A stretch of 64,000 nucleotides of DNA. It comes from Lentzea waywayandensis. Its GTDB lineage: Bacteria > Actinomycetota > Actinomycetes > Mycobacteriales > Pseudonocardiaceae. Location of the stretch: positions 339,849 to 403,848 of the forward strand of contig NZ_FOYL01000006.1 of assembly GCF_900115955.1 (NCBI RefSeq). Direction: 5' to 3'. The position numbers were made by a program, and so were the translations under genes. Shown in pieces: positions 47,578 to 64,000 of this stretch; position 1 is the stretch's first letter, and each line of letters starts with the position of its first letter. A model generated the notes under the pieces. The model saw only the letters and a program-made list of their open reading frames with translations, searched no databases and was not told the DNA's origin.

Positions 47578-48768
47578 TCAACTGAGCCAGGTTCGTGCGG
47601 CGACGACCAGAGCGTCGACTCCGGTGGACAGCGTCGGCTCGATGTCCGGCGCGTACTCGGGGGAGTGGTTCATCGCGACCGGCTGACCGGGTTCGCGGGT
47701 GCTGAAGTCCGTGCCGCCGAGGAACCAGAACACCGTCGGAATCCCTGCGGCCGTACCGAAAACGCCGACGTCCTCGCTGGCGTTGACCACCGCGCCGGGA
47801 ATCAGGTTGTGCTTGCCGAAGTGCTCGGCGAACGCGGCCATGGTCGTCGTGGTCGCGTCAGGATCGGACACGAGCACGGGAGTGCCGTCGTACCAGTCGA
47901 ACTCGGGCTCGCGCGGTGCCCCGGAGGCGGCGGCCTCGGCGCGGGCGATCCGTTCAACCGCGGCGCGAACGATGCCGCGGACGTGCTCGTTGAACGTCCG
48001 GATGTTGACGCCGATCTCGGCGGTCTCCGGGATGACGTTCTCCTTGGTACCGGCCTGCAGCCGCCCGACCGTGACGACGGCACGCTCGGACGGTGCGATC
48101 TCGCGCGCGACGATGCCTTGCAACCGCACTACGACGTGCGCGGCCATCAGCACGGGATCGACCGCGGTCTCCGGCGCCGAACCGTGACCGCCCCGGCCGA
48201 ACAACGTGACCCGCACCGAGTCGGACGCCGCCATCAGCGGCCCGCTGCCGTACGCGATCATCCCGGCCGGCAGCGGGCTGACGTGTTGTGCCAGCACGAC
48301 TTCCGGCTTGCCGAACCGTTCGAAGAGGCCGTCGGCGACCATGTCCCGTGCGCCGCGGCCCAGTTCCTCGGCGGGCTGGAACACCACGAGCAGCGTCCCC
48401 GTCCACTCCTCGCGGGTCTGCGCCAACCGCTCGGCCGCCCCGATCAGGCACGTGGCGTGCATGTCGTGCCCGCACGCGTGCGCCACCGGCACGTCCTCAC
48501 CGTCCACAGTGGTCGCACGAGCCGTTGACGCGTAGGGCAGTCCTGTCGATTCCCGCACGGGCAACGCGTCGATGTCCGCCCTGAGCATCACGACCGGGCC
48601 GTCGCCGTTGGGCAGCACGCCCACCACGCCAGTGCCGCCGACCTCGGTGGTGACCTCGTATCCCAGCGGCCGCAACGCGTCCGCCAGCACGCCGGCCGTG
48701 CGGAACTCGCGCAGCGACAGTTCGGGGTGGCTGTGCAGATCGCGATAGAGCGCGTGCAGGTCGGGCAC
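47578..48768 (-). CDS. M20-family amidohydrolase (IAA-amino acid hydrolase/AbgA-like)
   Basis: 396 residues. The metal-site motifs are HSHPELSLREF, MLRADIDALPVRE, AHACGHDMHATCLIGA, FQPAEELGRGARDMVADGLF and the dimerisation/lid motif GRGGHGSAPETAVDPV. The catalytic Glu pair is EE in PAEELG. It should remove an acyl or aryl group from an amino acid or dipeptide conjugate. GTG 48768 has GAGGGAGA upstream. It is the second gene after marR (10-base gap), so it is likely under MarR control. Confidence 0.9.
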   Translation of the reverse strand: MPDLHALYRDLHSHPELSLREFRTAGVLADALRPLGYEVTTEVGGTGVVGVLPNGDGPVVMLRADIDALPVRESTGLPYASTARATTVDGEDVPVAHACGHDMHATCLIGAAERLAQTREEWTGTLLVVFQPAEELGRGARDMVADGLFERFGKPEVVLAQHVSPLPAGMIAYGSGPLMAASDSVRVTLFGRGGHGSAPETAVDPVLMAAHVVVRLQGIVAREIAPSERAVVTVGRLQAGTKENVIPETAEIGVNIRTFNEHVRGIVRAAVERIARAEAAASGAPREPEFDWYDGTPVLVSDPDATTTTMAAFAEHFGKHNLIPGAVVNASEDVGVFGTAAGIPTVFWFLGGTDFSTREPGQPVAMNHSPEYAPDIEPTLSTGVDALVVAARTWLS

Positions 48769-50693: not shown

Positions 50694-52361
50694 TCACGGG
50701 GTGACCGGTGCGTTGGTCAGGCCCTTCACCGCCCCGGTCACGGTGTTCGACGCGTAGACGACGTTGGGCATCGCCGTGCACTTCGACACCGAGGTGATGT
50801 TGATGGCGTACTGGCCGACGCCGCCGAGGTCGGAACGGTTGTTGCGCCAGACGTTGCCGCAGCCGTTGGGCAGGCTGGGGGTGGTGCTGGTGTTGTGCGT
50901 CTCGTAGCCGTTGGCGAAGGTGCCGGGGCTGCGGAACGTGCCGGTGTTGTCCTCGACGAGGTATCCGATGCCCTTGACGTCGATCCAGGAGTCGGCCGAG
51001 TTCTGGCCGGTGATGCCCTGCCCGTCGAAGGTGTTGCCGCGGATGATCCCCTCGTAGGTGCCTTCCTTGACGTCGATCGGCTCGGCCGCGACGTTCGGGC
51101 CGATCTTGTTGTTCAGCACCTGGACGCGGTCGCTGCGGTCGATGCCGCCGTTGTTGCCGTGGCAGGCCCAGTTGGAGTTGGCGGAACCGAGGTACACGCC
51201 TTCGCCGTAGCCGGGCTGGACCAGGCCGGTGTCGGTGATGGTGGAGTTGCGGATGATGCCGTCGGCCGAGGAACGGCGGAAGTGGACGGCCTCCTCGTCG
51301 ACGTGGTGCACCGAGACCGAGTCGATCGTGGTGTGGTGCGAGTTGTCGAGGACGATGCCCTTCTTCGACTCCCGCACGGTGAACCCGGTGAGGTTCCAGT
51401 ACGGGGAACCGAAGACCCACAGGCCGTAGCCGGAGTCCCAGCCCGCGGTGGGCGCGGGGCAGGACGGGGCCTCGCCGGTGGGGCCGTCGTTGATGAGGAC
51501 GGCGTCCCGAGGCCCGCTCAGGGTGATCGGCTGGGACGCGGTGCCCGCACGGCCGTTGACGACGAACGAGCCGCGGTAGGTGCCCGCCGCGAGTTTGATC
51601 GTCTGGCCCGCGATGGCCGCGGCCAGTGCTGCCTGGAGTTGCGCCGCGGTGGAGACGTCGACGGTGCTGCCGCCGCCGGTGCCCGGACTGGTCGTGGCGC
51701 TGACCGCCGCGCTCGCCGCCGACGTGTTGCCCGCCGCGTCCTTGGCGCGCACCGAGAACGAGTACGCGGTGGCGGGGGACAGGCCGGTGACCGTGGCGGA
51801 CGTGCCGGTGACGGTGGCGTTGACCGCGTTGCCGAGCAGCACCTCGTAACCGGTGACGCCGACGTTGTCAGTGGACGCCGTCCACGCCAGCGACACCGAA
51901 CCGGACGTCACGCCGGTCGACCGCAGACCCGTCGGTACGGTGGGCGCCTGCGTGTCGGTGGGCGGAGTACCGCCGCCACATGCCACGCCGTTGATCGTGC
52001 AGTTCGTCGGAAGGCTGCCACCGGACGCGTTGAAGCCGAACTTGGTGCTGGCGCCGGGTTTGACGGTGCCGTTGAAGCTCGCGTTGGTGAACTTGTGGTG
52101 CTGGCCCGTGGAAGTGCGGACGGAGCTCCAGGAGCTGGTGATCGTGGTGCCGGACGGCAGGTCGAACTCGACCGTCCACGACGTGCTCGCGGCGTCACCG
52201 GAGTTGGTGATCGTCACGTCCGCGCCGTAGCCGCCGTTCCACACCGACGTCTGGGTGACCGACGCCTTCAGCACGGGTGCCGCGGCCTGCGCGGACCCGC
52301 CGCTCAGCAGTGCCGCGACCGTCGCGGTCACCGCGGCGAGCGCGAGTGCTCGTGTGCCCAT
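50694..52361 (-). CDS. Secreted CBM2 - fibronectin III - right-handed beta-helix protein (polysaccharide lyase-like)
   Basis: 555 residues. Signal peptide 1-26 (ending GGSAQA). Cellulose-binding CBM2 (about 28-130) with QTSVWNGGYGADVTITN and SSWSSVRTSTGQHHKFTN. An Fn3 domain follows (about 138-220: PTGLRSTGVTSGSVSLAWTAS). The catalytic part (about 228-555) is a parallel beta-helix starting TAAQLQAALAAAIAGQTIKLAAGTYRG, a pectate-lyase/chondroitinase-B-like layout, with IRNSTITDTG and VEDNTGTF repeats. The order CBM first is unlike its neighbour, where CBM2 is last. Its ATG overlaps the upstream stop (ATGA), so translation is coupled. It probably acts on plant-wall pectin or a related uronate polymer. 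Confidence 0.85.
   Translation of the reverse strand: MGTRALALAAVTATVAALLSGGSAQAAAPVLKASVTQTSVWNGGYGADVTITNSGDAASTSWTVEFDLPSGTTITSSWSSVRTSTGQHHKFTNASFNGTVKPGASTKFGFNASGGSLPTNCTINGVACGGGTPPTDTQAPTVPTGLRSTGVTSGSVSLAWTASTDNVGVTGYEVLLGNAVNATVTGTSATVTGLSPATAYSFSVRAKDAAGNTSAASAAVSATTSPGTGGGSTVDVSTAAQLQAALAAAIAGQTIKLAAGTYRGSFVVNGRAGTASQPITLSGPRDAVLINDGPTGEAPSCPAPTAGWDSGYGLWVFGSPYWNLTGFTVRESKKGIVLDNSHHTTIDSVSVHHVDEEAVHFRRSSADGIIRNSTITDTGLVQPGYGEGVYLGSANSNWACHGNNGGIDRSDRVQVLNNKIGPNVAAEPIDVKEGTYEGIIRGNTFDGQGITGQNSADSWIDVKGIGYLVEDNTGTFRSPGTFANGYETHNTSTTPSLPNGCGNVWRNNRSDLGGVGQYAINITSVSKCTAMPNVVYASNTVTGAVKGLTNAPVTP
52027..52115 (-). repeat. 89-bp exact repeat, copy A (CBM2 coding)
   Basis: Identical base for base to 52422-52510. 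The repeat lies inside the CBM2 domain of the downstream gene. The flanks stay similar but carry scattered third-position differences, which points to recent duplication or gene conversion rather than chance. Confidence 0.9.
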
Positions 52362-54637
52362 CAGTTGCCTCCGCAGGACTTGCCGTTGACGGTGCAGCCG
52401 GCGGGGAGACCGGCACCCGAGGCGTTGAAGCCGAACTTGGTGCTGGCGCCGGGTTTGACGGTGCCGTTGAAGCTCGCGTTGGTGAACTTGTGGTGCTGGC
52501 CCGTGGAAGTCCGCACGGAACTCCAGGAACTGCTGACCGTGGTGCCCGACGGCAGATCGAACTCGACCGTCCACGACGTCGTCGCGGTGGCGCAGCCGTT
52601 GGTGATCGTCACGTCGGCGCCGTAGCCGCCGTTCCACACCGAGGTCTGGGTGACCTTGGCGGTGACGCACGCACCCGCAGGCGGCGTGGTCGTCGTGGTG
52701 GTTGCCGACGTCGTCGTGGACGTGGTGGTGCTGGTCGGCGGGGTGCCGTTGACCGAGCTCAGGAACAGCGACGCCGCCGAGTCCGTCTTCGTGGCGTCCA
52801 CGCCGTGGCCGCCGGTGAAGTCGCGCTGCTCGTTGGTGGCCCAGTCGGTGATCGGCGTGCCGCCGATGTCCAGGTGCTGGTAGGCCGTGCCGTTCCAGCC
52901 GAACTGGTAGATCCGCGAGTGGTCGGCGTAGTAGTCGTTGAACGTGCCGCCGGTCGCGGTCTGCTTGGTCATCGTGTTGTTGAAGAAGACGTTGCGGGGA
53001 CCGGACGCGCCGGACCACTTCACCGCCTTCTTGCCGGCACCCCACCAGATCGGGAACCAGTTGGAGTTGTCGGGACCGCCACCGCCCTCCTCGCCGCAGT
53101 TGGCGCGGCAGTTGCCGGAGCGGTGCGCGTAGGGCACCCGGACCGTGTTCAGCTCGAACAGGTTGTTGCGCTCCCAGCCGCCGTGCAGGTTCAGGTCGGA
53201 GTCGAAGTCGTTGCCGATCACGACGTTGCCCGAGGCGGACCACTGGAACGTGAAGTGGCGCAGGTTGCGCGAGGTGTTGCCGGTGTACAGCGAGTCCCAC
53301 ACGCGCGAGCCGCGGAAGTAGCCGTTGCCGCCCTTGCCCTTGTTCCACGAGCCGTCGAGCTCGTTGTTCACGATCTGGAGGTTCTTGGCCTCCTCGGTGA
53401 CGATCGGGTGCGAGCCCGTCATCTCCGCTTTGATGCCGCGCACCCAGGAGTTGGCCGCCCACTTGAAGACGATGCCGTGCATCTCGGCGGCGGGCGCCAT
53501 GTTGCCGTAGTTGTTGATCGAGTCGGCCTGGTTGAGGCCAGGCATCGCCTGCGTGAAGCCGAAGTCCTCGAAGCCGACGCCCTCGACCGGGTCGACCAGC
53601 GGGGACACCTTCGAGTCGTACGGCGTCCCGTCGATCGGCGCGGAACCGTCCGAAGTGGAGTTGACCGGGACGTCGTACTCGAGCGGCTTGTCCAGCGTCA
53701 CGGTGTTGCCCGAGACCGAGGTGACGGTGAAGATCTGCTGCCGCATGTGCATGTTCAGCATCGGGAACCCGGTGCCGGTCGCCTGCTGCTGCTCGTAGAA
53801 CTTGACCGAGTTCGCGGCACGGACGTTCACGAACATGCCGGCCTTGATCCTGGTGGCCGACTGCACGGTGATCGTGCGGTCACCGGTCCTGGCGGTGGTG
53901 GCCACCTTCGCGCCGACCTTCCAGTGCACGTTCACCGTGCCCTCGAAGATGTCCTTGCGGTTGGCGGGAGCCGCGGCGTAGTCGCTCGCGTAGCTCGGGT
54001 CGACACCGCGTGACTGGACCCGGAACAGGCCGCGGCCCGGCCACAGCCAGCCGCCCTTGCCCGCACCGGAGGTCATGCCGTCCTCGTCCCAGTCGGAGCC
54101 GTCCGGGGTGAGGGCGTCGTAGAGGGTGTTCGCGTCCGGCCGGTAGGTGATCTTCGTGGCGTCCTTGCCGGCCCCGCGCAGAATCAGGTAGTCGGCGTCC
54201 ACGTGCAGTTCGCGCGACACGGCCAGCTCACCGGCGGGCAACGTGATCAGGCTCAGCTTCGTGTGGCTCGCCGCCGGCGAACAGTTCGTTTTGATCGAAT
54301 CTATGGCCGACTGCAGACCCGTGGAATCGTCCAGGCCGTCATTCGGCTTCACGTTGAACTGGCTCGCCAATTCGGCCGCGGTGATCTGGCACGCCGCACT
54401 GGGGTTGATCTCGTTCGCACCGGGGAGGTTCTGACCACCCCGATAACCGGCTTTGCTCCAGTCGTACAGCCCGCTCACGGGCGCTCGACGATTGCCCGCC
54501 GAGGTGTCCAGTCCGGTGAGCGCGCCCGCAGCGGGTGCCGCGCCCGCGGCGTTGACCAGCACGGCGATGCCCACCGCGGCGAGAGTGCCCACGATTCCGA
54601 GCGTGGCGGCTCGTCGTAGGCCATGACTTCGGGACAC
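52361..54637 (-). CDS. Secreted beta-helix polysaccharide-active enzyme with Ser/Thr linker and C-terminal CBM2
   Basis: 758 residues. Signal peptide (about 1-33). The beta-helix domain (about 75-620) begins with AIDSIKTNCSPAASHTKLSLITLPAGELAVSRELHVDADYLILRGAGKDATKI in outline, then IVNNELDGSW, NVVIGNDFDSDL and NVFFNNTMTKQ. Four cysteines around CRANCGEEGGGG may form disulfides. A low-complexity TSTTTSTTTSATTTTTTPPAG-type linker joins it to CBM2 (about 660-758). The fold suggests a pectate/alginate lyase or glycoside hydrolase, but no catalytic triad can be assigned. GTG 54637 has GGAGG six bases upstream. First gene of a two-gene operon. Confidence 0.82.
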   Translation of the reverse strand: MSRSHGLRRAATLGIVGTLAAVGIAVLVNAAGAAPAAGALTGLDTSAGNRRAPVSGLYDWSKAGYRGGQNLPGANEINPSAACQITAAELASQFNVKPNDGLDDSTGLQSAIDSIKTNCSPAASHTKLSLITLPAGELAVSRELHVDADYLILRGAGKDATKITYRPDANTLYDALTPDGSDWDEDGMTSGAGKGGWLWPGRGLFRVQSRGVDPSYASDYAAAPANRKDIFEGTVNVHWKVGAKVATTARTGDRTITVQSATRIKAGMFVNVRAANSVKFYEQQQATGTGFPMLNMHMRQQIFTVTSVSGNTVTLDKPLEYDVPVNSTSDGSAPIDGTPYDSKVSPLVDPVEGVGFEDFGFTQAMPGLNQADSINNYGNMAPAAEMHGIVFKWAANSWVRGIKAEMTGSHPIVTEEAKNLQIVNNELDGSWNKGKGGNGYFRGSRVWDSLYTGNTSRNLRHFTFQWSASGNVVIGNDFDSDLNLHGGWERNNLFELNTVRVPYAHRSGNCRANCGEEGGGGPDNSNWFPIWWGAGKKAVKWSGASGPRNVFFNNTMTKQTATGGTFNDYYADHSRIYQFGWNGTAYQHLDIGGTPITDWATNEQRDFTGGHGVDATKTDSAASLFLSSVNGTPPTSTTTSTTTSATTTTTTPPAGACVTAKVTQTSVWNGGYGADVTITNGCATATTSWTVEFDLPSGTTVSSSWSSVRTSTGQHHKFTNASFNGTVKPGASTKFGFNASGAGLPAGCTVNGKSCGGN
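52422..52510 (-). repeat. 89-bp exact repeat, copy B (CBM2 coding)
   Basis: Second copy of the segment at 52027-52115, 395 bp away in the same orientation, inside the CBM2 domain of the upstream gene. Two such direct repeats in one operon could recombine to delete the intervening 395 bp, which would fuse the two genes. Confidence 0.9.
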
Positions 54638-55297
54638 GGATGCCTCCAGGGAACAGTTCGACCACGTATGTGGGGCGGCTCACATCGTGGAGTCGAATTG
54701 TGAATAGTTCCTGAGGCGTCGTCAATGATTCGCGGCTAATTCGCGATAATGTTCAAGGGTGTGAAAAGTCAGATATGTGAATTAGGAAAATGGCACCGTT
54801 TGCAGAAGTCTGTTGCGCCTGCTCGTGGGCCTGATTGAATCGGGGTCCGGTGTCGGGCTGTGTCGATGCATGCTGGGGTTCTCGGGCTCGCGGTCGGGGG
54901 TTTGCAGGATGTTTCGCGGGCGGTCACCGCGATCATCGCGGCGGTCGTGGACTTGTCGATCCTCGGGCTTCTCGTGGCGACGGGGCATCCCGCCTGCCGA
55001 GCCTGTCCTGCCTGGTGACCGGTGCCCGCCCTGACGTTGGTGATGACGCGGGCGGAGACCGAGCGCGGCGAGGATTTCCGTCATCCAGCGCGGATCCGTG
55101 CGGCGTCCCAACGAATACCCGGTTCCGATCTCGTCGTACAGCTTTGTTTCGGCCACACCTGCCCTCAGGTGATCGGCGTTCTTCCAGAGGAGCGATACCG
55201 GTGATGCCAGCGCTGGTGGAATCGAAGTTGTTGGCACCGTGGCACCTGCGGCAACACTTGAGTCCTGTGTGAACTGTTCGGTGTCGATGTAACGAAT
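54638..55297. other. 660-bp region with no intact gene; promoter zone and gene remnant
   Basis: The part next to the enzyme operon (54640-54790) is relatively AT-rich. It has GAATTGTGAATAGTTC-like partial symmetry at 54700-54715 and two ATTCGCG copies near 54728 and 54740, consistent with a regulated promoter for the minus-strand enzymes. 54790-55017 has no recognisable gene. 55018-55156 is a methyltransferase fragment. 55157-55297 is presumably the promoter of the plus-strand gene cluster; no strong boxes were seen. Confidence 0.5.
55018..55156 (-). pseudogene. Truncated, frameshifted copy of the methyltransferase gene at 49869-50615
   Basis: From GTG 55156 the minus strand reads a start matching the intact gene (KLYDEIGTGYSLGRRTDPRW, against DLYDEIGTGYSWGRRTDPRW), then MTEILAALG. 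After this an extra base shifts the frame. In the shifted frame the DNA still matches the motif-I region (GCGGGCACCGGT at its end), and similarity then stops at about 55018. Only the first 45 or so codons remain. It is therefore a remnant, not a gene. Confidence 0.8.
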
Positions 55298-56548
55298 GTG
55301 ACGCAAGGCCCCGATCACCGGGGCATGTTGGTCAGTCTCACGCGCATCGGCGCCTCCCGGCAGGGGCTCGACAAGGCGTTCGCTGTCGTCGGAACCACCC
55401 ACGACGCGGCGGCGCACGCCCTCAGCCGCGCTGATCTCCGGCTCGGCGGCCGGCAGGTGGGCGTGACCGCGGGGACGCAGGGGTTGTTCTCGCTCAGGCT
55501 GCCGCTGAGCTGGCTCGGCACCCGCCCTGCTCGCGATGACCTGTTCACCGAACTCGGCACGCTGCTCGACGCGGTGGCGGCGATCGTGGAACGCGCGGGC
55601 GGTGCGCTGGTGTCCGCCGGGGTGGCGCCGCAGCGCACGAAGGCGGTGCCCGGCGGTGACGTGCATGTGCTGGAGGTGCTGTCGTCCGTCGAGCAGGAAG
55701 TCCTGTGCAACGTGCTGCGCAGTTGGGTGCCCACGCTCATCGCACTGACCGGGACCGGCACCACCACGGGCGCCGCGCCGCCGGATCGGATCGGTTCGCG
55801 GTGGCTGGCAGGTTCGAACGCACACCTCTCGACGCGCTTCCTCGCGTCGACCGCGCGCAACCACCTGGACCGCGTGAAGGCGGAACTGCGGCGCAAGGAC
55901 GGCGTCGCGCAACTGGATCGGATGGACGTGTCACCGGCCGACCTGCCGGACGGCGGACTGGCGGTGGTCGTCAGGTGCACGGACGCCGCGGTGACGCTGG
56001 CGGGGGTGCGGGCGCAGGCACTGCTGATGAGCGCGCTCGCGATGCATGCCAGAAGGCTGGTGCGCGACGGCAGGCGCGCGGGTCACCAACCCCAGAGGCT
56101 CCTGGAGGAGAACCGGGCCCGCGCGATCACGGACGGCATGCGCGCGAGGTTCGAGGTGGAGGACCGCAAACGCGGATCCGTGCGAGGAAAACGCCCTGCA
56201 CGGGAGTCCGCGAGGCGGCTGCTGCGCGACCTGTGCGTCGAGTTCCGCAACCTGGACGCGGATCCCGCGGAGCTGGCGCCGTTCCTGCTGGCACTGGACC
56301 TGCCGGGGCTGGGCCTGCGTGGCGGGGCCGCGGAACGGGACCTGCTCGCGCGCTGGGCCGGCGCAGGTGACGCCGAACTGCTGTCCCGCTGCCGTTCCGC
56401 GCTGACCAACCCCGCGCCTGGGGGCCCGCTGCTCGCGGAACTGACCTCGTCGGCGCCGGGCCGGGTCGCGGTGGTGCTGGGGGAGTGGCGGCGTGGCATC
56501 GCCGAAGCGGGAACCGGCCGGGCGGCACGGCGAGGTGACGAGGCATGA
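55298..56548 (+). CDS. Glutamate-cysteine-ligase-like (GCS2-type) fold protein, first gene of the kinase/VWA cluster
   Basis: 416 residues. The order of segments recalls carboxylate-amine ligases. LLDAVAAIVERAGGALVSAGVAPQ is followed by DVHVLEVLSSVEQEVLCNVLRSWVPTLIALTGTGTTTG, matching the family's HVHVG..N.LRPWLP.LLALSA block. GSRWLAGSNAHLSTRF comes next, then LAVVVRCTDAAVTLAGVRAQALLMSALAMHARRLV, and LLEENRARAITDGMRARFEVED (cf. ENRW.AARYG). The N-terminal E-x-E strand of active GCS2 enzymes is not evident, so activity is doubtful. No membrane segment. Start GTG 55298 or ATG 55325. The stop overlaps the next ATG. Fold assignment is tentative. Confidence 0.55.
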   Translation: MTQGPDHRGMLVSLTRIGASRQGLDKAFAVVGTTHDAAAHALSRADLRLGGRQVGVTAGTQGLFSLRLPLSWLGTRPARDDLFTELGTLLDAVAAIVERAGGALVSAGVAPQRTKAVPGGDVHVLEVLSSVEQEVLCNVLRSWVPTLIALTGTGTTTGAAPPDRIGSRWLAGSNAHLSTRFLASTARNHLDRVKAELRRKDGVAQLDRMDVSPADLPDGGLAVVVRCTDAAVTLAGVRAQALLMSALAMHARRLVRDGRRAGHQPQRLLEENRARAITDGMRARFEVEDRKRGSVRGKRPARESARRLLRDLCVEFRNLDADPAELAPFLLALDLPGLGLRGGAAERDLLARWAGAGDAELLSRCRSALTNPAPGGPLLAELTSSAPGRVAVVLGEWRRGIAEAGTGRAARRGDEA

Positions 56549-57768
56549 CAGGGCACGACGTCGAACTGGTGCTCGACCTGCGCGAGTTGACGAACGCGCC
56601 GGGCACCAAAGAGGAGTTCGCCGCGCTGTGGGCGGATCTGGAAATCGCGTTGACCGGGCAGGACCTCCAGCGCCGCAGGGTGCATTCGCTGGACGGGGCA
56701 GGCGGCACGGTGCGGCTCGAGGTCGTGCGGGCGGGTGCAGGGGTGGTCGGGGCGGACACCCGGTTCGCCGTGGTGGCCGTGCGGGAACGCGCGGAGATCC
56801 GCTATCGGTGCAGGCACTGCACCGGGAAGGCCGAGTACGCGCCGTTCCTGTGCTCGGTCTGCCCGTCCGACGGCAACGACAACCGCGTGTGCGACCGGCA
56901 CGTCGTGATGCTCGACGGTGCTCTCATCGCCACGTGCCAGGACCATCGGCCCACCTGTCAGGCGTGTCCGTCGGCCGCCGTGTTCCGGTGCACGGGGCGG
57001 GCCTGCCAGAGGGCAAAGGCCTGGTGCGGAACGCATCGCAGGTCGCACCCGAAAGATCCGGACCTCGCGTTCTGCCCACCGTGCTTCGAGGAGGCGTTTC
57101 CCCGCTGCGAGAGTTCGTCGTGCGGTGACCTCGGATCGGTGCGGTGCGAACACCTCACCCGCGACTTCCGCCGGTGCGCCCGCAGGATGTGCACCCAGCA
57201 CGCACACCGCTGGCAGGTGTTCGGGGGTGAACGCGTCGGGCTCGGCCGTTGCTCCGCCCACCGCGCCGTCAAGTCAGCGGCGCCTGACGAGGTCTTGTTC
57301 CAGATCGTCGGCGGCGCGGCGCGGCGCAGGCACAAAGAGCGGCAGCCGAGCCTGAGCGGGTTCGGGTACACGCTGCGCTACTGCGAGCACGCGGCGCTCG
57401 CCAAGGACCTGCCCGCTGTGCACCGGATGTTGCGGGCGTTGGAGCGCGAGGTCGTGAGGAACGCCGTGACGACGGCGGCGATGGCCGAGTCCTGGCAGGC
57501 CTGGGACCGGCAGCTCAAGGAGGCGCTGGAGGACCGCGCGGAGGGCGAGCGGTTGATCGCCGTGCTGCGGCCGCTGGTGCACTCGCGGCTGACGCAGGAG
57601 ATCCAGCTCGGGGAGTACAAGCGCGCGAGCGGCGCGCGGAAAGCGTTGCTCTTCGTCGAGGTGCCGGACGACCTCGCCGGTCTCTTCTACGGGAAGAACA
57701 GGGGCAACATCGCGAAGTACGAGAAGGCTCTGGGAGTCACGGTGAAGCGGGAACGAGGCGACCGGTGA
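56545..57768 (+). CDS. Multi-zinc-cluster protein with C-terminal KH-like RNA-binding domain
   Basis: 407 residues. After an 85-residue N-terminal alpha/beta domain come at least five Cys/His pairs-of-pairs. Ligand pairs are Cys89/92, 103/106, Cys116/His119, Cys131/His134, Cys138/141, 149/154, Cys161/His164, Cys177/180, Cys188/193, Cys201/His203, Cys211/216 with His219, and Cys236/His239, a mix of zinc-ribbon and B-box-like treble clefs. A helical region (about 280-360) follows. Residues about 366-404 then read as a KH domain: LLFVEVPDDLAGLFYGKNRGNI with the GKNRG loop in the GxxG position, then AKYEKALGVTVKRE. RNA binding is the likely activity. It overlaps both neighbours by four bases. Confidence 0.75.
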   Translation: MTGHDVELVLDLRELTNAPGTKEEFAALWADLEIALTGQDLQRRRVHSLDGAGGTVRLEVVRAGAGVVGADTRFAVVAVRERAEIRYRCRHCTGKAEYAPFLCSVCPSDGNDNRVCDRHVVMLDGALIATCQDHRPTCQACPSAAVFRCTGRACQRAKAWCGTHRRSHPKDPDLAFCPPCFEEAFPRCESSSCGDLGSVRCEHLTRDFRRCARRMCTQHAHRWQVFGGERVGLGRCSAHRAVKSAAPDEVLFQIVGGAARRRHKERQPSLSGFGYTLRYCEHAALAKDLPAVHRMLRALEREVVRNAVTTAAMAESWQAWDRQLKEALEDRAEGERLIAVLRPLVHSRLTQEIQLGEYKRASGARKALLFVEVPDDLAGLFYGKNRGNIAKYEKALGVTVKRERGDR

Positions 57769-59597
57769 GGCGATCGACTGTCGCCGCGTCGGGACCGCAC
57801 CGGCTGGTCGCCGTGCCGGGTGGCGGTGCTGTCACGGGAACCCGCGTCGGTGTGCCGGTGGGCGCGGGCTCAGGCGCCGGGGTGCTGAGCGTTCGTTCCG
57901 GGACGGGCTGGCTGCAGGCGGCGGTGCTCGCCACCGAACTGGCCGAGGTGCCGGCGAAGCACGTCGCCATCGACGAAGACCTTGCCGCGCAATGGGATCT
58001 GGACGTCGCGGACCGGCAGCGGTGGCAGCTCGACCTGGTGGACGCGGTGCCGGTCGGCAAGCTGGTGCTGGAACTCGCGACCGAACGCGAACCAGGTGAA
58101 GCGGCCCGCGAGTTCGCACAGGCCGGACTCGTCGGAGAACTGCTCTGGGTGCCCGCCAAAGGCACGGACTTCTCGGTGTCCGTGAACGGTGTGCCGCACC
58201 GCGTGCACGAGGTCGACGCGGGCGGACACCACGAGGTCGTCGCCCGCATTACGAAGAACACCGTCGTCGAGCTGTACGCGCCCGCGTCCCGTGCGGGCGT
58301 CGACGTGGTGGTCCTCGCGGACACCAGCTTTTCGATGCAGATGCAGGACCTGCCCGCCGTGCGCGCGTCCGCGTGGGGCACGTTCACCACGGGCGAGCAG
58401 TGGATCACCCGCGTCGAGGCGTTGCGGGAGTCGTTGCGGGACCTGCTGGAGATGCGCACGCGTGTCTCCGGGCGCGTGTCACGGCTCGCCCTGCTGGAGT
58501 TCAACGGCCAGGTGCGACAGGTCTTTCCGCACCAGCCCGGCATGGTGCAGCTCGACGCGGACTCGCCGGCCCCGCTCGTGGACGACTTCCGGCGCGCGGT
58601 CGCGTCGATGAAACCGTCCGGCAGCACGGACATCGGCCAGGCGCTGCACGCCGCGGCCAATCTGCTCCACCGCAACGGCAGACCGGGCAACGAGAAGCTC
58701 GTCGTGCTGGTCAGCGACGGCGCGAACTGGGTGCCCAGGGGTGAGTCCGGCACCGGCGAGATCGTGTCCGCCGTCAAGGAACCGGTGAGCCTGATGGAGC
58801 ACCTGCACCGCGACCTCGGCATCCGGCTGCACGCCGTGGGCATCAGCGACGAGAACCTCTATCGCAGGCGCGGCGGCGACATGCGGAAGGCCGAGTACGT
58901 CCCCAACCACACGTTGCTCCGCGAGCTGGTGAAGGTCGGCGGCGGCGATTCCACCACGGTCGGCGGGCTCGACGCGCTCGCCGGCTACTTCGGCGGACTC
59001 GGCGGCGGCATCGTCCACCGCGTCCAAGGCCGCCTCACCGCGGCGCCGAAACCCGGCCCGCTTCCCGAACGCACCCGCACCGCGCTCCAGGCGCTGCGGC
59101 ACACCGGAACCGAGGACTGGGACCGGCACCGGGAGGAGCTGAAGGCCGGCATCACCGAGCTGGCCGGTCGGTGCGACACGGAGTTCCAGCGCAGCCACGG
59201 CCAGGACGTGTGGGTGGACCGGTTCGTGCTCCAGCTGTCCGGCCGGGAGTTCGGCTCGCTCGTCGCGGACGTCGCCGGTGCCGCGAACTTCCTCGTCCGC
59301 GTGTCCAGAGGACTGCGTCCGCAACCGGACCACGCGGCGTTCGCCCCGCTGGTCGCGCTGCTCGACGAGCTGCGGTCGATCGGGGAGAACGGCGGCGTCG
59401 ACTACGGCCGGGTGACCGGGTTGTGCGGTAAGCGTGCCGACTCGCCGGGCAGCGTCCAGGTGCTCGTGATGCGCCGCGTCCACGACGTGATGACCGACGT
59501 CCACCGGGCGCTGTCCTCCGCACCGGCACCCGTGATCGTGATCGCCGCGCCGGCGAGCACCGCACGACCCGCGTCCTCCTTCGTCTACCGGAACTGA
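57765..59597 (+). CDS. VWA-domain protein with probable Cdc48-N-like N-terminal region
   Basis: 610 residues. Residues about 1-170 contain two small beta-barrel-like units (VLSVRSGTGWLQAAVLA, AKHVAIDEDLAAQWDL, GKLVLELATE; then ELLWVPAKGTDFSVSVNGV), reminiscent of the double-psi barrel plus second barrel of Cdc48-N domains. The VWA domain (about 178-370) has a complete MIDAS: DTSFS (Asp186, Ser188, Ser190), Thr288 in GSTDIG and Asp318 in LVSDG. The remaining 240 residues are helical. GTG 57765 overlaps the previous stop. VWA proteins of TerY/YegL type partner with the kinases found downstream here. Confidence 0.8.
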   Translation: MRRSTVAASGPHRLVAVPGGGAVTGTRVGVPVGAGSGAGVLSVRSGTGWLQAAVLATELAEVPAKHVAIDEDLAAQWDLDVADRQRWQLDLVDAVPVGKLVLELATEREPGEAAREFAQAGLVGELLWVPAKGTDFSVSVNGVPHRVHEVDAGGHHEVVARITKNTVVELYAPASRAGVDVVVLADTSFSMQMQDLPAVRASAWGTFTTGEQWITRVEALRESLRDLLEMRTRVSGRVSRLALLEFNGQVRQVFPHQPGMVQLDADSPAPLVDDFRRAVASMKPSGSTDIGQALHAAANLLHRNGRPGNEKLVVLVSDGANWVPRGESGTGEIVSAVKEPVSLMEHLHRDLGIRLHAVGISDENLYRRRGGDMRKAEYVPNHTLLRELVKVGGGDSTTVGGLDALAGYFGGLGGGIVHRVQGRLTAAPKPGPLPERTRTALQALRHTGTEDWDRHREELKAGITELAGRCDTEFQRSHGQDVWVDRFVLQLSGREFGSLVADVAGAANFLVRVSRGLRPQPDHAAFAPLVALLDELRSIGENGGVDYGRVTGLCGKRADSPGSVQVLVMRRVHDVMTDVHRALSSAPAPVIVIAAPASTARPASSFVYRN

Positions 59598-59602
59598 GCT
59601 CG

Positions 59603-61396
59603 ATGACCACCGTGGGAATGAGGGTCGGGCCTGCCGGGGCGCCTGACCACTACGAGCTCTGCGAACGGGTCACCGAGGGCGGCGAGGGCGAGATCTGGCT
59701 CGCCACGACCGCACGCGTCAACGAGATCGACCGCCGCTGGGCCGTGAAGGTGTTGCACTCGAGGCATCTCGAGCAGAACCAGCACGAGACGCCGGACCAG
59801 GCGCTGGCCCGCTGGTACCGGAAGGCCGAGGAGGCACGGGAGGAGACCAGCCAGCTCGCTGTCCCCGGGGTGGCCGGCGCGTCGACGGTGTTCATCGGTG
59901 CCGAGCCGCACGAACCGGGCAGAGCGGGTGATCGTCACACGCTTTACGTCGTGTCGCGGTGGATCGATGGTGACGACCTGACGCGATGGGTGCGCAAGGC
60001 CAAGCCGTCCTTCGCGGACGTCTGCGTCGTCGCTGGCAAGCTCGCCGGGATCATCGACTCGATCAGCACCGGTCCGCTCGCCGTGCACCACCGGGACATC
60101 TCGCCCGCGAACGTCATGGTCGACGAGAAGGGCGAGGTGCACCTGATCGACTTCACCTCGGTCGTGCCGGCCAGGAGCGGTCCGACCACGACCGTGCGCA
60201 CCTACGGCTACACCGCACCCGAAGGCGGGAACAAAGGCACCGCCGAAGCGGACAGGTACTCGTTCGGCGCGGTGATCCACTTCCTGCTGCTCGGCCTGCC
60301 GCCGAGGGAGAGCCACGCGGCGGTGACGTGCCGGTCCGCGTTGCGCAGGGCCAACTTCCCGGCCGAGGTCGCGGACCACGTCGCCGAGTTGCTCGTGGAG
60401 GACGCGAAGCGCAGGCCGAAGTCGTTGCGCGACTGGGCCGCCCGGCTGCGGGCGATGATCGACGCGGTCGACGCGATGCCGGCGCGGTCACTGGTGGTCG
60501 ACCTCGACCTGGCACTGGACGTCACCGGGACACCGACCATCGCGGCGATCGGCGACTCGGTGCTGTCGCGGGCCCGGCTCGCGGTCGGGTCCACCGGAAA
60601 GCTCGTGCCGGACGCCGCCGCACCGTCGTTCCCGCAGTACGTGAGAGTCGGCGTCGACGGAGCGGGCGAGGTCGTCCAGTTCGTGATCGACAGCGCCCGT
60701 GCGATGTGGATCGGCCGCTCCGGGCAGTGGCGGCAGGCAGGGGAAGCCGTGCCGGCGGGTGGGATCGCGGTGCTCAGGCGGTCCGACGGCTCGGTCACGG
60801 CGTTCGTCGTCGATCCGTTCGGCCTGCTGACCGCCGTCACCGCCGAGGTCGGGGGAGGAGTGCACCGCGCAGATCAGCACCTGCACGTGCAACGGGTGCT
60901 GGCGTCCACAGTGGACGCTGATGGGCGCCCGGCGACGGCGGTGGTCATGCCGGACGGCGAGTTGGCGGTGGCGTGCGAGGACCGGCGGGACAGGCTCGGC
61001 GTGACCGGTGTGGCCGCCGCGGGACTGTGCCTCAACACCTACGGCGAGCTCCAGTGCCGGTGCGTGCTCGGCGGCGGCCGGCAGATCGCCGTTTTCGAGC
61101 AGCAGTACGGGGAATGGGCCCGGACGAGTGTCGCGAACGCGCCCGGACGTGCCGCGGACATCGCGTGCGTCGGCCAGCGCGACGGCGTCACCGTGGCCGT
61201 CGCGGGTGATGACGGGCTGTGGGTAGGTGAGGACGGCGCATCGTGGCAACGGCTGAGCGACGAACCCGCGCACCGCGTCGCGCTCGGCATCGGTGCCGCG
61301 TGGCGACTGCGGCTCGCCGCCGTGGTTGCGGGCCGGGGCGTCGTCGCGAGTGAGGGTTTCGACGGCAAGTGGCCGCCGGGCCTGCGGAAACTGTGA
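59603..61396 (+). CDS. Ser/Thr protein kinase with C-terminal beta-rich (propeller-like) domain
   Basis: 597 residues, no membrane segment. Kinase domain about 16-275: glycine loop EGGEGEIW, Lys49 in WAVKV, catalytic HRDISPAN (Asp165, Asn170), metal Asp183 in LIDFT in place of DFG, activation-loop end YTAPEGG and EADRYSFGAVIHFLLLG. All essential residues are present. Residues about 295-597 consist of repeated short strands with turns such as GVDGAGEVVQFVIDSARAMWIGRSGQWRQAG and VAVAGDDGLWVGEDGASWQRL, a beta-propeller-like sensor. It is five bases downstream of the VWA gene, its likely partner or substrate. Confidence 0.88.
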   Translation: MTTVGMRVGPAGAPDHYELCERVTEGGEGEIWLATTARVNEIDRRWAVKVLHSRHLEQNQHETPDQALARWYRKAEEAREETSQLAVPGVAGASTVFIGAEPHEPGRAGDRHTLYVVSRWIDGDDLTRWVRKAKPSFADVCVVAGKLAGIIDSISTGPLAVHHRDISPANVMVDEKGEVHLIDFTSVVPARSGPTTTVRTYGYTAPEGGNKGTAEADRYSFGAVIHFLLLGLPPRESHAAVTCRSALRRANFPAEVADHVAELLVEDAKRRPKSLRDWAARLRAMIDAVDAMPARSLVVDLDLALDVTGTPTIAAIGDSVLSRARLAVGSTGKLVPDAAAPSFPQYVRVGVDGAGEVVQFVIDSARAMWIGRSGQWRQAGEAVPAGGIAVLRRSDGSVTAFVVDPFGLLTAVTAEVGGGVHRADQHLHVQRVLASTVDADGRPATAVVMPDGELAVACEDRRDRLGVTGVAAAGLCLNTYGELQCRCVLGGGRQIAVFEQQYGEWARTSVANAPGRAADIACVGQRDGVTVAVAGDDGLWVGEDGASWQRLSDEPAHRVALGIGAAWRLRLAAVVAGRGVVASEGFDGKWPPGLRKL

Positions 61397-61411
61397 TTAG
61401 GAGAGACGTTG

Positions 61412-62122
61412 GTGTTCAACGAGTACGTGTACGCGTCCCAGAACAAGGTGCGGCAGTTCGTGCCGGTCGACGAGTCCTGGTGGTCGCGGCTGCGGGTTCG
61501 CAAGATCGCGGGCAAGGTCCGCGTCGCTCCTCTGGAGACCTCGGTGGAATTGGAGCCGGTCGGCGCCACGCTGTCGGACGGTGACCTGGAGCAGTTGGTC
61601 GAGCACCTCAGCGCGGAGTCGCGGTGGTACCGGGACGACGACCTGATTCCCGGGACCTGGGTCCACTTCGAGGGCAGGATCGGCTGTCAGGCGTTGCCCG
61701 AGGGCGCGGCGATCTTCTGCGAGGCGGGCGGTCTGGAGAAGACGACCACACGCATCATGCTGCACGGCTCCGCGGCCAACCTGCTGGGCACGACTCCCTC
61801 CGTCGCACCGGAGGGCAGTCGCTTCTCCCACTTCGGCGCGGCGTCGTCGGTGGTGGAGTCGGCGCTCGCGAACGCCGCGCTGCCCGTGGGGGAACAGAAG
61901 TTCTGGGGCCCGTTCGGCCGGAGCAGGGGCCAGGTGCCGGGCTCGGCGCTGGCGGAGCACGTCGGCACGCTGTTCCGCGAGGTCGCCTGTCACGACTGGT
62001 ACTACGACGAGTCGCCGTACCTCGCGGGATGCGCGCGGGTCAGTGCCGTCGTGCGTCCACAGGAGTTGCCGTTCGCCGTGGTCGTGGCCTCTCCGCTGTT
62101 CGTACGGCATTCGCACCCGTGA
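61412..62122 (+). CDS. Unrecognised cluster protein, 236 aa
   Basis: Starts at GTG 61412 (AGGAG eight bases upstream; the overlapping TTG 61409 is an alternative). N-terminus: FNEYVYASQNKVRQFVP, a pattern (short strand, then S..KV) I recall from uncharacterised Streptomyces proteins. The middle has WVHFEGRIGCQALPEGAAIFCEAG and the end a WYYDESPYLAGCARVSAVV strand pair. No catalytic motif, signal peptide or membrane segment was found. It lies 15 bases after the kinase gene, and 211 bases of non-coding DNA follow, so it may end the first transcription unit of the cluster. Confidence 0.7.
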   Translation: MFNEYVYASQNKVRQFVPVDESWWSRLRVRKIAGKVRVAPLETSVELEPVGATLSDGDLEQLVEHLSAESRWYRDDDLIPGTWVHFEGRIGCQALPEGAAIFCEAGGLEKTTTRIMLHGSAANLLGTTPSVAPEGSRFSHFGAASSVVESALANAALPVGEQKFWGPFGRSRGQVPGSALAEHVGTLFREVACHDWYYDESPYLAGCARVSAVVRPQELPFAVVVASPLFVRHSHP

Positions 62123-62190
62123 CCAGGTAGGTGCGGCCCGTATTGGCATTGCGATCGGGTTTGTTACAGGTCCGGAGTGGTCAGTTCGTG

Positions 62191-62310
62191 GACATTTCTC
62201 GTTATTCCAGATCGGATGGGATCGTCTGCTCGGACATTTCTCGTGAGCCGGTAACAGCAGAGCGGGTTTCTCGATAGTCCATCCGTGAGTCGGGCGTACC
62301 GACACATTTC
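62191..62310. promoter_or_regulatory. Repeat-containing internal promoter region of the kinase cluster
   Basis: In the only long gap inside the cluster (62123-62333), a 13-base direct repeat GGACATTTCTCGT occurs at 62191-62203 and 62233-62245, 42 bp apart (four helical turns). A third, partial copy (ACATTTC) lies at 62304-62310. Same-face repeats suggest a binding site for a regulator and hence a second promoter for the last two genes. Confidence 0.5.
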
Positions 62311-62333
62311 CTGAGTGGAGGATGGAGAATTCG

Positions 62334-63737
62334 ATGACGTCTGCTGTCGAGTACTCCGACCTCGGGCAGCTGGGTGCTCAGCTCGGGCGTGGTGGGCAGG
62401 CTGTCGTGTGGGACGCGCCGAACGCGAAAGTCCCCGGCGTGTCGGCACCGTTGGTGTACAAGGAGTACAAGCAAGCGCCACCGTCCGGTGCGGAGCTTCG
62501 CAAGATCGTCGGGCTGCGCGCCAAACTGTCCGGAGCGGACCTCGATCGGCTCAACGAGCTGACCACCTGGCCGTTGCGCGTAGTGGAACGCGCGGGCGTC
62601 GCCTGTGGAATCCTGATGCGCCGGATTCCGGCCGAATTCGGTGCCGAAATCCCGGTTCTCAGCACTGGTGGCACGAAGTGGATTCCGCGCGAGGTGCAGT
62701 TCCTGTTCATCCCGCCGGATCGGCTCGGCGGGCCGAGGATCGGCTGGCAGGTGCCGACCTGGGAACAGCGGCTCGGAATCTGCCGGGACTTCGCGGAGTT
62801 GCTGGACTTCTACCACGAACGTCTCGAAGTCGTGTTCGGGGACATCAATCCGAAGAACGAGCTCTATCGGCTCGACGGCAGGCCTTCGGTGATGTTCATC
62901 GACTGCGACGGCGTGCGGTCGATGAGCCAGGTCGCGCGGAACGTCCAGCTCAACGTCGACGACTGGCAGCCGCCGGAACGCGGCCCGCTCACCAGGCTCA
63001 GCGACCGGTACAAGTTCGGCCTGTTCGTCCGCCGGACGCTGCTGCCGGACAAGCTCACGTCCACCGCGACCGACCCGGCCGCGATCGCGTCCGTGCTCGA
63101 CCGGACGGGCACCGACCTGCTCACCAGGGCGATCACCAAGACCGCCGACCCGAAGCAGCGGCCGTCCGCGGGCGAGTGGCTGACGTACTTCCGCCGGCTG
63201 CTCGGCGAGGACATCGACCCGCCCGTCCTGATCGAGACGGAACTGGACCGGTCGTTCGTTGCTCTGGGCAACCCGGTGCAACTGCGCTGGAGGGCGACGG
63301 ACGCGGTCACGCTCGATGTCGTCGTCGACGGCAAGAAGACGTCGGTCGACGCCCGGCCGGGCAGTGGCGTCGTGCAGCTGTGGCCCGACCGCACCACGCA
63401 CATCGCCGTGACGGCGGCCAATTCCCTCGGGACCGACTCCAGGGTCGTCGGTCCCGTCGCGGTGATCCCACCGCCGGACGTGCTGCGCACCCCGGTCGTC
63501 CTGCCGGACCTGCCGCCGGTCACCGAGTTCATGGGCTCGCTCCCGCGGACCTCGTTGCCTGATCTGCCGGACGTGGTGCCGCGGGCCCGCCTCGACCCGT
63601 TCGACGTCGCGCCGGCCGGCCGCGGGTTCGGCTGGCCGGCGCTCGACGTCGCCCGATTTCCGTTCGACCTGAACGAACTGCTGCTCGGTGGCCCTCCGCT
63701 CGACGGGCTGCTGGCCAACTCTGAGGAAACGACATGA
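62334..63737 (+). CDS. Divergent protein-kinase-like protein with C-terminal Ig-like domain
   Basis: 467 residues. Kinase-like region about 8-290: GRGGQAVVW (glycine loop, 18-26), Lys43 in LVYKEYK, FGDINPKN (catalytic Asp170, Asn175; no preceding HR) and IDCDG (Asp190, in place of DFG). This is the atypical YegI/HhH-kinase style. Residues about 305-385 form an Ig-like sandwich (LGNPVQLRWRATDAVTLDVVVDGKK), often seen as a protein-binding module. The tail is Pro-rich. ATG 62334 is preferred (GGAG six bases upstream) over ATG 62322. Its stop overlaps the next ATG (63734-63737). Confidence 0.8.
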   Translation: MTSAVEYSDLGQLGAQLGRGGQAVVWDAPNAKVPGVSAPLVYKEYKQAPPSGAELRKIVGLRAKLSGADLDRLNELTTWPLRVVERAGVACGILMRRIPAEFGAEIPVLSTGGTKWIPREVQFLFIPPDRLGGPRIGWQVPTWEQRLGICRDFAELLDFYHERLEVVFGDINPKNELYRLDGRPSVMFIDCDGVRSMSQVARNVQLNVDDWQPPERGPLTRLSDRYKFGLFVRRTLLPDKLTSTATDPAAIASVLDRTGTDLLTRAITKTADPKQRPSAGEWLTYFRRLLGEDIDPPVLIETELDRSFVALGNPVQLRWRATDAVTLDVVVDGKKTSVDARPGSGVVQLWPDRTTHIAVTAANSLGTDSRVVGPVAVIPPPDVLRTPVVLPDLPPVTEFMGSLPRTSLPDLPDVVPRARLDPFDVAPAGRGFGWPALDVARFPFDLNELLLGGPPLDGLLANSEETT

Positions 63738-64000
63738 GTCTGCGTCACGCGCTCGCCGTGCTGGCGGGCGCTCGTCCGGAGATCCTGACGAAGGCTCCCG
63801 GCGATCTCACCAAACAAGCCGTGATGGGCGGTGTTCTGCTCAGCACCGCCAGTCTTGCCGGTGTGGCCGCGTTCTTCGCCCTGTCCAGCACCCTTGAGCT
63901 GGCGTGGTGGATCGCCGTGCCGAGCGCGCTCGTGTGGTTCGTGATCGTGCTCAACCTGGACCGGCTCCTGGTCGTGACGCTCAACACCGTGTCGGGCTGG
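63734..64000 (+). CDS. DUF4407-family membrane protein (N-terminal part, runs off the window)
   Basis: The first 89 residues are visible: a short cytosolic head (SLRHALAVLAGARPEILTKAPGD), then two membrane helices (AVMGGVLLSTASLAGVAAFFAL and WWIAVPSALVWFVIVLNLDRLLV in outline). Helix 1, the loop and the NLDRLLV end of helix 2 are typical of DUF4407, whose members continue with a long coiled coil. It overlaps the kinase-like gene by four bases. A membrane-anchored coiled-coil protein would give the cluster a membrane docking point. Confidence 0.8.
   Translation, partial: MSLRHALAVLAGARPEILTKAPGDLTKQAVMGGVLLSTASLAGVAAFFALSSTLELAWWIAVPSALVWFVIVLNLDRLLVVTLNTVSGW

What the first reader, a model, noticed from the sequence alone, without database searches (positions are those of the whole stretch)
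55298..64000. Seven-gene kinase / VWA / zinc-KH / GCS2-like / DUF4407 cluster: candidate undescribed signalling or defence system
Seven consecutive same-strand genes, most with four-base stop/start overlaps, combine parts rarely seen together. They are a GCS2-like ligase fold, a zinc-cluster protein with a KH-like RNA-binding end, a MIDAS-complete VWA protein, a complete Ser/Thr kinase, an unknown, a second atypical kinase fused to an Ig-like domain, and a DUF4407 membrane protein. VWA plus YegI-type kinase is known from the TerY-P and yegIJKL gene sets, which also carry a PP2C phosphatase (not yet visible here). The RNA-binding and ligase-like members suggest a pathway in which an RNA or translation component is sensed or modified under kinase control. 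I infer function only from domain company.
Basis: partly seen in the sequence, partly recalled or inferred. Interest (0 to 1): 0.88.

Follow-up and report, generated by a model that had tools for sequence, protein, structure and literature searches.

The report
Two neighbouring operons, one apparently undescribed
What looked like one seven-gene system is two separate gene sets lying side by side in a soil bacterium: a known type of signalling set, and a rare, conserved set built around an RNA-binding zinc protein that may guard the cell against invaders.

Summary
The seven genes are real but are not one system. Genes 1-5 (module A, 55325-62122) recur as a unit: GCS2-fold (A1), zinc/KH (A2) and VWA (A3) proteins stand in the same order in 13 of 13 distinct actinobacterial loci found. 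Seven loci add the kinase A4, six of these also A5 (SAVMC3_10250/DUF7019). The other six (four of them Streptomycetaceae) open instead with a membrane protein matching PADLOC's CorA-like profile (6 of 6).
Genes 6-7 begin another operon (module B, 62322 to about 68637, mostly outside the window): kinase, DUF4407, TerY-like VWA, PP2C, second kinase, DA1-like zincin. That is a TerY-P-like set, known in outline. A and B were not found together elsewhere. Both sit beside tRNA-Lys at a variable spot; 17 of 17 congeneric loci examined there lack them.
Best reading: module A is a rare accessory, probably RNA-triggered defence or stress system with exchangeable outputs. The anatomy is solid; the function is inferred. 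My searches found no paper describing module A.

The parts
55325..56548 (+). A1: GCS2/YbdK-fold protein (407 aa), predicted not to be an active ligase, with extra C-terminal helical part
56545..57768 (+). A2: zinc-cluster protein (26 invariant Cys/His) with C-terminal KH domain (residues about 325-407)
57765..59597 (+). A3: VWA protein with intact MIDAS and about 170 N-terminal residues of unknown fold
   Evidence: PF00092 E 4.4e-9; D186 S188 S190 T288 D318 identical in 13 of 13
59603..61396 (+). A4: Ser/Thr protein kinase with about 300 unclassified C-terminal residues
   Evidence: PF00069 E 1.6e-13; K49, D165, N170, D183 identical in 7 of 7; C-terminal part alone: no Pfam match at E 0.05
61409..62122 (+). 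A5: SAVMC3_10250/DUF7019 family protein (start TTG 61409 or GTG 61412)
   Evidence: NF040893 E 4.8e-44; last gene of the module in 6 of 13 loci
62322..63737 (+).
   Evidence: 46% identical over residues 8-290 to B5; conserved with DUF4407, VWA and PP2C in L036-L038; no Pfam match
63734..64000 (+). B2: DUF4407 membrane protein; continues to window-equivalent 65182, followed outside the window by B3 VWA 65207-65950, B4 PP2C 65950-67008, B5 kinase 67005-67964, B6 DA1-like 67954-68637
   Evidence: PF14362 E 4.9e-72, PF13519 E 1.5e-11, PF13672 E 1e-18; PF12315 E 8.3e-17; coordinates

Best explanation
Two independent accessory operons share one variable spot beside tRNA-Lys. Module B is a TerY-P-like kinase/phosphatase/VWA set. 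Module A is an apparently undescribed unit with a fixed core: A1, a GCS2-fold protein that has lost conserved glutamates and probably binds rather than ligates; A2, a multi-zinc protein with a KH domain; A3, a MIDAS VWA protein that probably holds the complex together. Shown: co-conservation, order, folds, motif states, rarity. Inferred: A2 senses an RNA (phage or damaged host RNA), A1 and A3 relay that state, and an exchangeable output acts: a CorA-like membrane protein in the Streptomyces type, or the A4 kinase with A5 in the type seen here. The likely effect is dormancy or death of the infected or stressed cell.
For: A1-A2-A3 in the same order in 13 of 13 distinct loci. Clean exchange of partners: A4 in 7 of 7 type I and 0 of 6 type II, CorA-like gene in 0 of 7 and 6 of 6. 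Distances of the three core proteins correlate at r 0.97-0.98, 0 of 5000 permutations as high (shared descent of the hosts contributes). KH fold and 26 invariant Cys/His in A2. PADLOC CorA-like profile in 6 of 6 (E up to 0.01, best 2.4e-12). Rare: full-length A2 in 4 of 297 family, 1 of 249 order, 1 of 394 class and 4 of 249 Streptomycetaceae genomes, own or centre genome included. At the own site none of the 11 proteins matches in 17 of 17 congeneric loci (E 1e-5). Of the flanking genes that I picked by eye and scanned, two look like conflict genes: caspase-like in L055 (PADLOC caspase E 4.8e-7; Pfam C14 under cut-off) and a STAND-type ATPase in L056 (NPHP3_N E 1.5e-9).
Against: No experiment. 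Of the type I proteins only the kinase matches PADLOC, and such matches are generic. Neighbours look mostly ordinary by eye and were not scanned systematically, so a steady defence-island context is not shown. KH domains also serve transcription and ribosome functions. Type I has no membrane effector and type II no kinase in the operon, so a shared mechanism is a guess. That PADLOC's CorA models describe CRISPR-associated proteins is recalled; ordinary CorA channels were not run as a control.
Confidence: 0.4

Rival explanations
1. Module A is a housekeeping-type regulator of RNA or translation (for example ribosome or transcript handling under kinase control) with no role against invaders.
For: The A2 KH domain is closest in fold to KH-bearing GTPases (1wf3, Era), NusA and ribosomal S3-type chains, and the A2 profile picks up the KH of a protein that looks like RNase Y in another genome. 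RtcB lies directly upstream in L054.
Against: Very patchy: 4 of 297 genomes of the family; absent from 17 of 17 congeneric loci at this site. RtcB was noticed in 1 of 13 loci only. A CorA-like first gene in six loci fits an effector better.
Confidence: 0.25
2. A and B work as one system here.
For: Adjacent, same strand, same accessory spot; both contain VWA and kinase proteins.
Against: Of 10 other module A genomes tested (of 12), 8 have no B1 match and 2 have weak ones (E 4.4e-22 to the kinase part; E 1.6e-9 to residues 300-414). No gene with A1-A3 as best match in four 20-kb module B loci (L036-L038, L040). A 199-nt gap separates them.
Confidence: 0.08
3. A1 is an active amide-forming enzyme with a rebuilt active site, and module A makes a small molecule or tags a protein.
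Against: E19 and E235 of true GCS2 paralogues are A/G and V/A/L/T in 13 of 13; E52 is kept in 1 of 13, E59 in none. The N-terminal alignment is uncertain.
Confidence: 0.12
4. The core A1-A3 does something unrelated to RNA or defence, such as metal handling or envelope regulation.
For: 26 invariant Cys/His allow about six zinc sites; CorA-like relatives include magnesium channels (recalled).
Against: A KH domain is retained in most members, and the type II first gene matches PADLOC's CorA-like model (E 2.4e-12) far better than Pfam's transporter model (E 0.15).
Confidence: 0.15

Closest known systems
TerY-P triad (TerY-like VWA, PP2C, Ser/Thr kinase; passages read in PMC11090510)
   Same: Module B has a VWA, a PP2C and a kinase in consecutive genes
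   Different: The last part of B5 has no cysteine and no recognised zinc ribbon or OB fold; B adds a second kinase, DUF4407 and a DA1-like zincin. Module A has no PP2C
GAP1-N2 GTPase-centred conflict systems with kinase, PP2C and VWA (passage read in PMC7159879)
   Same: Actinobacterial kinase, PP2C and stand-alone VWA genes together, as in module B; L045 looks like this type by eye
   Different: No GTPase gene recognised by eye next to the own module B; not tested further
MoxR-VWA ternary systems (VMAP, iSTAND, TERNS3; passages read in PMC8195603)
   Same: Operon built around a VWA protein, in multicellular actinobacteria
   Different: No P-loop pattern in any module A protein examined, and A1 and A2 are different proteins
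CorA-like effector of type III CRISPR systems (abstract and passages read in PMC10600005)
   Same: First gene of the Streptomyces-type module A matches PADLOC CorA-like profiles in 6 of 6 (that these are the CRISPR-associated kind is recalled)
   Different: No Cas gene recognised by eye among the neighbours listed, no Cas search run; partners are A1-A3; the trigger is unknown
YbdK/GCS2 carboxylate-amine ligases
   Different: Conserved glutamates are gone

Membership tests
GCS2/YbdK carboxylate-amine ligase (A1) | Fold | tested here: met
GCS2/YbdK carboxylate-amine ligase (A1) | Conserved active-site glutamates (role as metal ligands recalled) | tested here: not met
   E19 to A/G and E235 to V/A/L/T in 13 of 13; E59 in 0, E52 in 1; D or E at E17 in 6 of 13; H134 and H136 unmatched in this alignment
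KH domain (A2) | KH fold and GxxG-type loop | tested here: met
VWA with MIDAS (A3) | DxSxS, T, D | tested here: met
   13 of 13
Active Ser/Thr kinase (A4) | G-loop, Lys, HRD Asp, Asn, DFG Asp | tested here: met
   7 of 7; the HRD Arg is Gly in L061 and the DFG Gly is Thr or Ser
TerY-P triad (module B) | VWA + PP2C + kinase in consecutive genes | tested here: met
   kinase B5 is under Pfam's cut-offs (14.7 and 18.7 bits)
TerY-P triad (module B) | Kinase fused at C-terminus to zinc ribbon or OB fold | tested here: inconclusive
   The last 80 or so residues of B5 have no Cys; a small OB-like end was not tested
TerY-P triad (module A) | PP2C | tested here: not met
   No PP2C match among A1-A5
MoxR-VWA ternary system (module A) | MoxR-type AAA+ ATPase partner | tested here: not met
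   P-loop pattern in 0 of 13 A1, A2 and A3, 0 of 7 A4, 0 of 4 A5 (of 6), 0 of 6 CorA-like; within 6 kb a P-loop pattern gene in 4 of 12 loci, differing in length and place; flanks short in L060, L063, L064
Type III CRISPR CorA effector (first gene of type II) | Profile match | tested here: met
   PDLC01043 in 6 of 6 at E up to 0.01, best 2.4e-12; CRISPR association of the model is recalled
Type III CRISPR CorA effector (first gene of type II) | Encoded with Cas10 and activated by SAM-AMP | not tested
   No Cas search was run; neighbours were listed only by gene calls

The most novel reading that the evidence does not exclude
Module A is a new class of immune or stress complex: an RNA-sensing multi-zinc KH protein, a retired carboxylate-amine ligase reused as a relay or messenger-binding part, and a VWA scaffold form a fixed core that drives interchangeable outputs, a CRISPR-type CorA-like membrane pore in one lineage and a protein kinase pathway in another.
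Probability: 0.3. Interest if true: 0.82.

Novelty: new variant of a known kind. Interest (0 to 1): 0.66.

Why it matters
If right, it links RNA sensing, VWA scaffolding and two unlike outputs outside CRISPR, shows a CorA-like effector with a non-CRISPR trigger, and shows a GCS2/PafA-clan fold used without its conserved glutamates. Small laboratory-friendly operons (four genes in the Streptomyces type) make it directly testable. It also corrects a boundary: reading neighbouring operons as one would send experiments astray.

Tried and rejected
One seven-gene system: rejected. A CDC48-N-like fold for the A3 N-terminus, suggested by eye: Pfam and PDB sequence searches gave nothing; hhalign with six CDC48-N sequences gave E 0.014 at probability 3% against 0.25-0.79 for five controls (four alignments, one reversed), so a lead only. 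Promoter/terminator between the modules: none found. Repeats in 54000-64000: imperfect 20-35-nt matches that I take as chance. Direct repeat flanking the island: none of 14 nt or more between 54001-55400 and 68601-69300, only two distinct 12-13-nt matches. Plasmid copies of A1, A2, A3: none at E 1e-5. PHROGs: nothing for A1, A2, A3, A5, DUF4407, the DA1-like protein or one CorA-like protein; weak hits (E about 1e-6) for B3 and B4. Fold of the A2 zinc part: the structure list covered the KH end only, so untested.

Hits dropped before counts: two weak A2 matches in the order search (E 3.8e-4 and 8.3e-4; G185 and G193, whose 20-kb surroundings show no module gene); a KH match in G617, whose protein looks like RNase Y by eye; a 38-residue match in G1100. 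L057 and L058 are the same contigs as L055 and L054 by length and were not counted twice. A first empty-site count used a 60% identity filter; I repeated it without one.

Literature: ten searches (one search listed 20 of 49). No listed title or abstract describes module A; only open-licence PMC papers were searched. I read passages of PMC7159879, PMC11090510, PMC8195603 and PMC10600005 (its abstract included); the rest only as listings.

Full report
WHAT IS THERE. The window is contig C18:339849-403848 of a 10.15-Mb genome. Relatives of the same family whose contigs carry names are Goodfellowiella and Saccharothrix, so the family is probably Pseudonocardiaceae (recalled). All seven reported genes exist on the + strand with high third-position GC. 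Three of six junctions have four-base overlaps; the widest gap, 199 nt, lies between genes 5 and 6.

TWO MODULES. An A2 search in 297 genomes of the family found three full-length relatives besides the own one (52-55% identity). All three carry A1-A2-A3-A4-A5 in the same order and orientation (40-63% identity); no gene in their 20-kb stretches had a module B protein as best blastp match. B1 searched in 249 genomes of the order gave 17 genomes with matches, own included. I fetched 15 of the other 16 regions. By my gene caller a VWA, a PP2C and a kinase stand near each other in 11 of the 15; L039, L043, L044 and L050 show part or none of the set. L036, L037 and L038 carry B1, DUF4407, VWA and PP2C in order; L037 and L038 also B5 and B6; L040 carries the same set rearranged. 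No gene in the 15 had A1-A3 or A5 as best match; A4 matched one kinase in L043. In reverse, of 10 other genomes with module A (of 12), 8 have no B1 match and 2 have weak ones (E 4.4e-22 to the kinase part; E 1.6e-9 to residues 300-414). A and B are therefore separate.

HOW WIDE IS MODULE A. A pattern scan of the 84,980-species collection with the A3 alignment used two short peptide patterns and confirmed 8 loci out of 72 matching stretches, two of them already known; this is a lower bound. New were Nocardia xishanensis, N. nova, Actinomadura roseirufa, Streptomyces sp. KL109B, Nocardiopsis sp. FR4 and Actinobacteria bacterium OK074. A profile search in 249 genomes of the family of the KL109B genome added three more. 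In total 13 distinct loci: A1-A2-A3 in order in 13 of 13. Type I (7 loci: window, L054, L055, L056, L059, L060, L061) continues with the kinase A4, and with A5 in 6 of 7. Type II (6 loci: L062, L063, L064, L077, L078, L079) has a CorA-like gene before A1. A six-frame profile search over all 13 loci gives A4 in 7 of 7 type I and 0 of 6 type II, A5 in 6 of 7 and 0 of 6, the CorA-like gene in 0 of 7 and 6 of 6; in L063 the contig ends 1.7 kb after A3, so absence there is not certain. Full-length A2 is rare: 4 of 297 (family), 1 of 249 (order), 1 of 394 (class), 4 of 249 (family of KL109B), each including the own or centre genome; weak or partial hits left out are listed under Tried and rejected. 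Pairwise distances of A1, A2 and A3 correlate at r 0.972-0.980 over 13 loci (0 of 5000 permutations as high) and at 0.92-0.97 within each type. Host descent contributes to this, so it shows joint inheritance, not interaction.

MODULE B. DUF4407 (E 4.9e-72), VWA (1.5e-11), PP2C (1e-18), two related kinase-like proteins (B1 and B5, 46% identical; only B5 has Pfam kinase matches, under the cut-offs) and a DA1-like zincin with a Cys-rich start (PF12315 E 8.3e-17). The labels TerY-like and YegI-like are recalled. VWA, PP2C and kinase triads are described as TerY-P (passages of PMC11090510) and as one theme of GAP1-N2 systems (passage of PMC7159879). Papers naming DUF4407 (3 found) were seen as listings only; no paper in the library holds both TerY and DUF4407. 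I treat B as a variant of a known kind.

WHERE THEY SIT. A tRNA-Lys gene lies at window-equivalent 68897-68971, minus strand, its 3' side facing module B. The next gene (69256-70389) is found in 24 of 24 genomes of the genus. I fetched its left flank (about 18 kb) in 17 of the 23 others. None of the 11 module proteins has a match at E 1e-5 in any of the 17, while left-hand genes are kept in part (47578-48768 in 12 of 17). In G411 (L096) the left neighbour 52361-54592 ends about 2.2 kb from tRNA-Lys, with two other genes between. Ten of 17 loci hold a second tRNA-Lys, and some carry transposase- or integrase-like genes (L094, L099, L106, L110; read by eye). The two modules are accessory cargo; no flanking repeat was found.

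HOW IT MAY WORK. Shown: a fixed core and exchangeable partners. Inferred: A2 binds RNA through KH and perhaps zinc fingers; A1 binds a ligand or partner without ligase chemistry; A3 scaffolds through MIDAS; output is a CorA-like membrane protein (type II) or kinase A4 with A5 (type I). CRISPR CorA is thought to disrupt the membrane after SAM-AMP binding (PMC10600005, passages); whether a messenger exists here is unknown. A caspase-like gene next to L055's module and a STAND-type ATPase near L056's fit a conflict setting, but I scanned only neighbours picked by eye, and most others look ordinary.

VERDICT. Observation partly confirmed; the seven-gene system is not supported; a five-gene system with a three-gene core is real, rare and, as far as ten literature searches show, not described. 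Function is inferred at about 40% confidence.

Noticed in passing
window-equivalent 68897-68971 (L003:15746-15820, -): tRNA-Lys(CTT) next to the modules; the spot is variable in the genus, with a second tRNA-Lys in 10 of 17 congeneric loci and transposase/integrase-like genes in some.
   Followed up: partly
L037:2018-6088 and L038:14969-19088: Downstream of module B two genomes share three more conserved genes (about 240, 740-750 and 365-393 aa); the L038 copies have no Pfam match. The own copy of module B lacks them.
   Followed up: partly
L054:6887-8056: RtcB RNA ligase gene (PF01139 E 2.5e-121) ends about 110 nt before A1 in Saccharothrix sp. ALI-22-I; not noticed next to module A in other loci.
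   Followed up: partly
window 62921-63000 (-): ARAGORN calls a tRNA-Gly inside the B1 coding sequence; probably a false positive.
   Followed up: no
L045:1-10204: VWA, PP2C and kinase next to a P-loop GTPase-like protein and a zinc-rich protein; looks like the published GAP1-N2 arrangement (by eye).
   Followed up: no
window 50694-54592 (-): Two long genes with secretion-signal-like starts and cellulose-binding-like stretches (by eye) to the left of module A; kept in only 1 of 17 congeneric loci examined (L096).
   Followed up: no
G000, loci L080-L084: Five ordinary GCS2-family genes elsewhere in the genome; four were used here as the active-site yardstick.
   Followed up: partly
L062:6745-8664, L063:6601-8439, L064:1503-3494: Type II A1 proteins carry a further conserved C-terminal part (about 150 aa) absent from type I; those of L077-L079 are of similar length but were not examined for it.
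   Followed up: no
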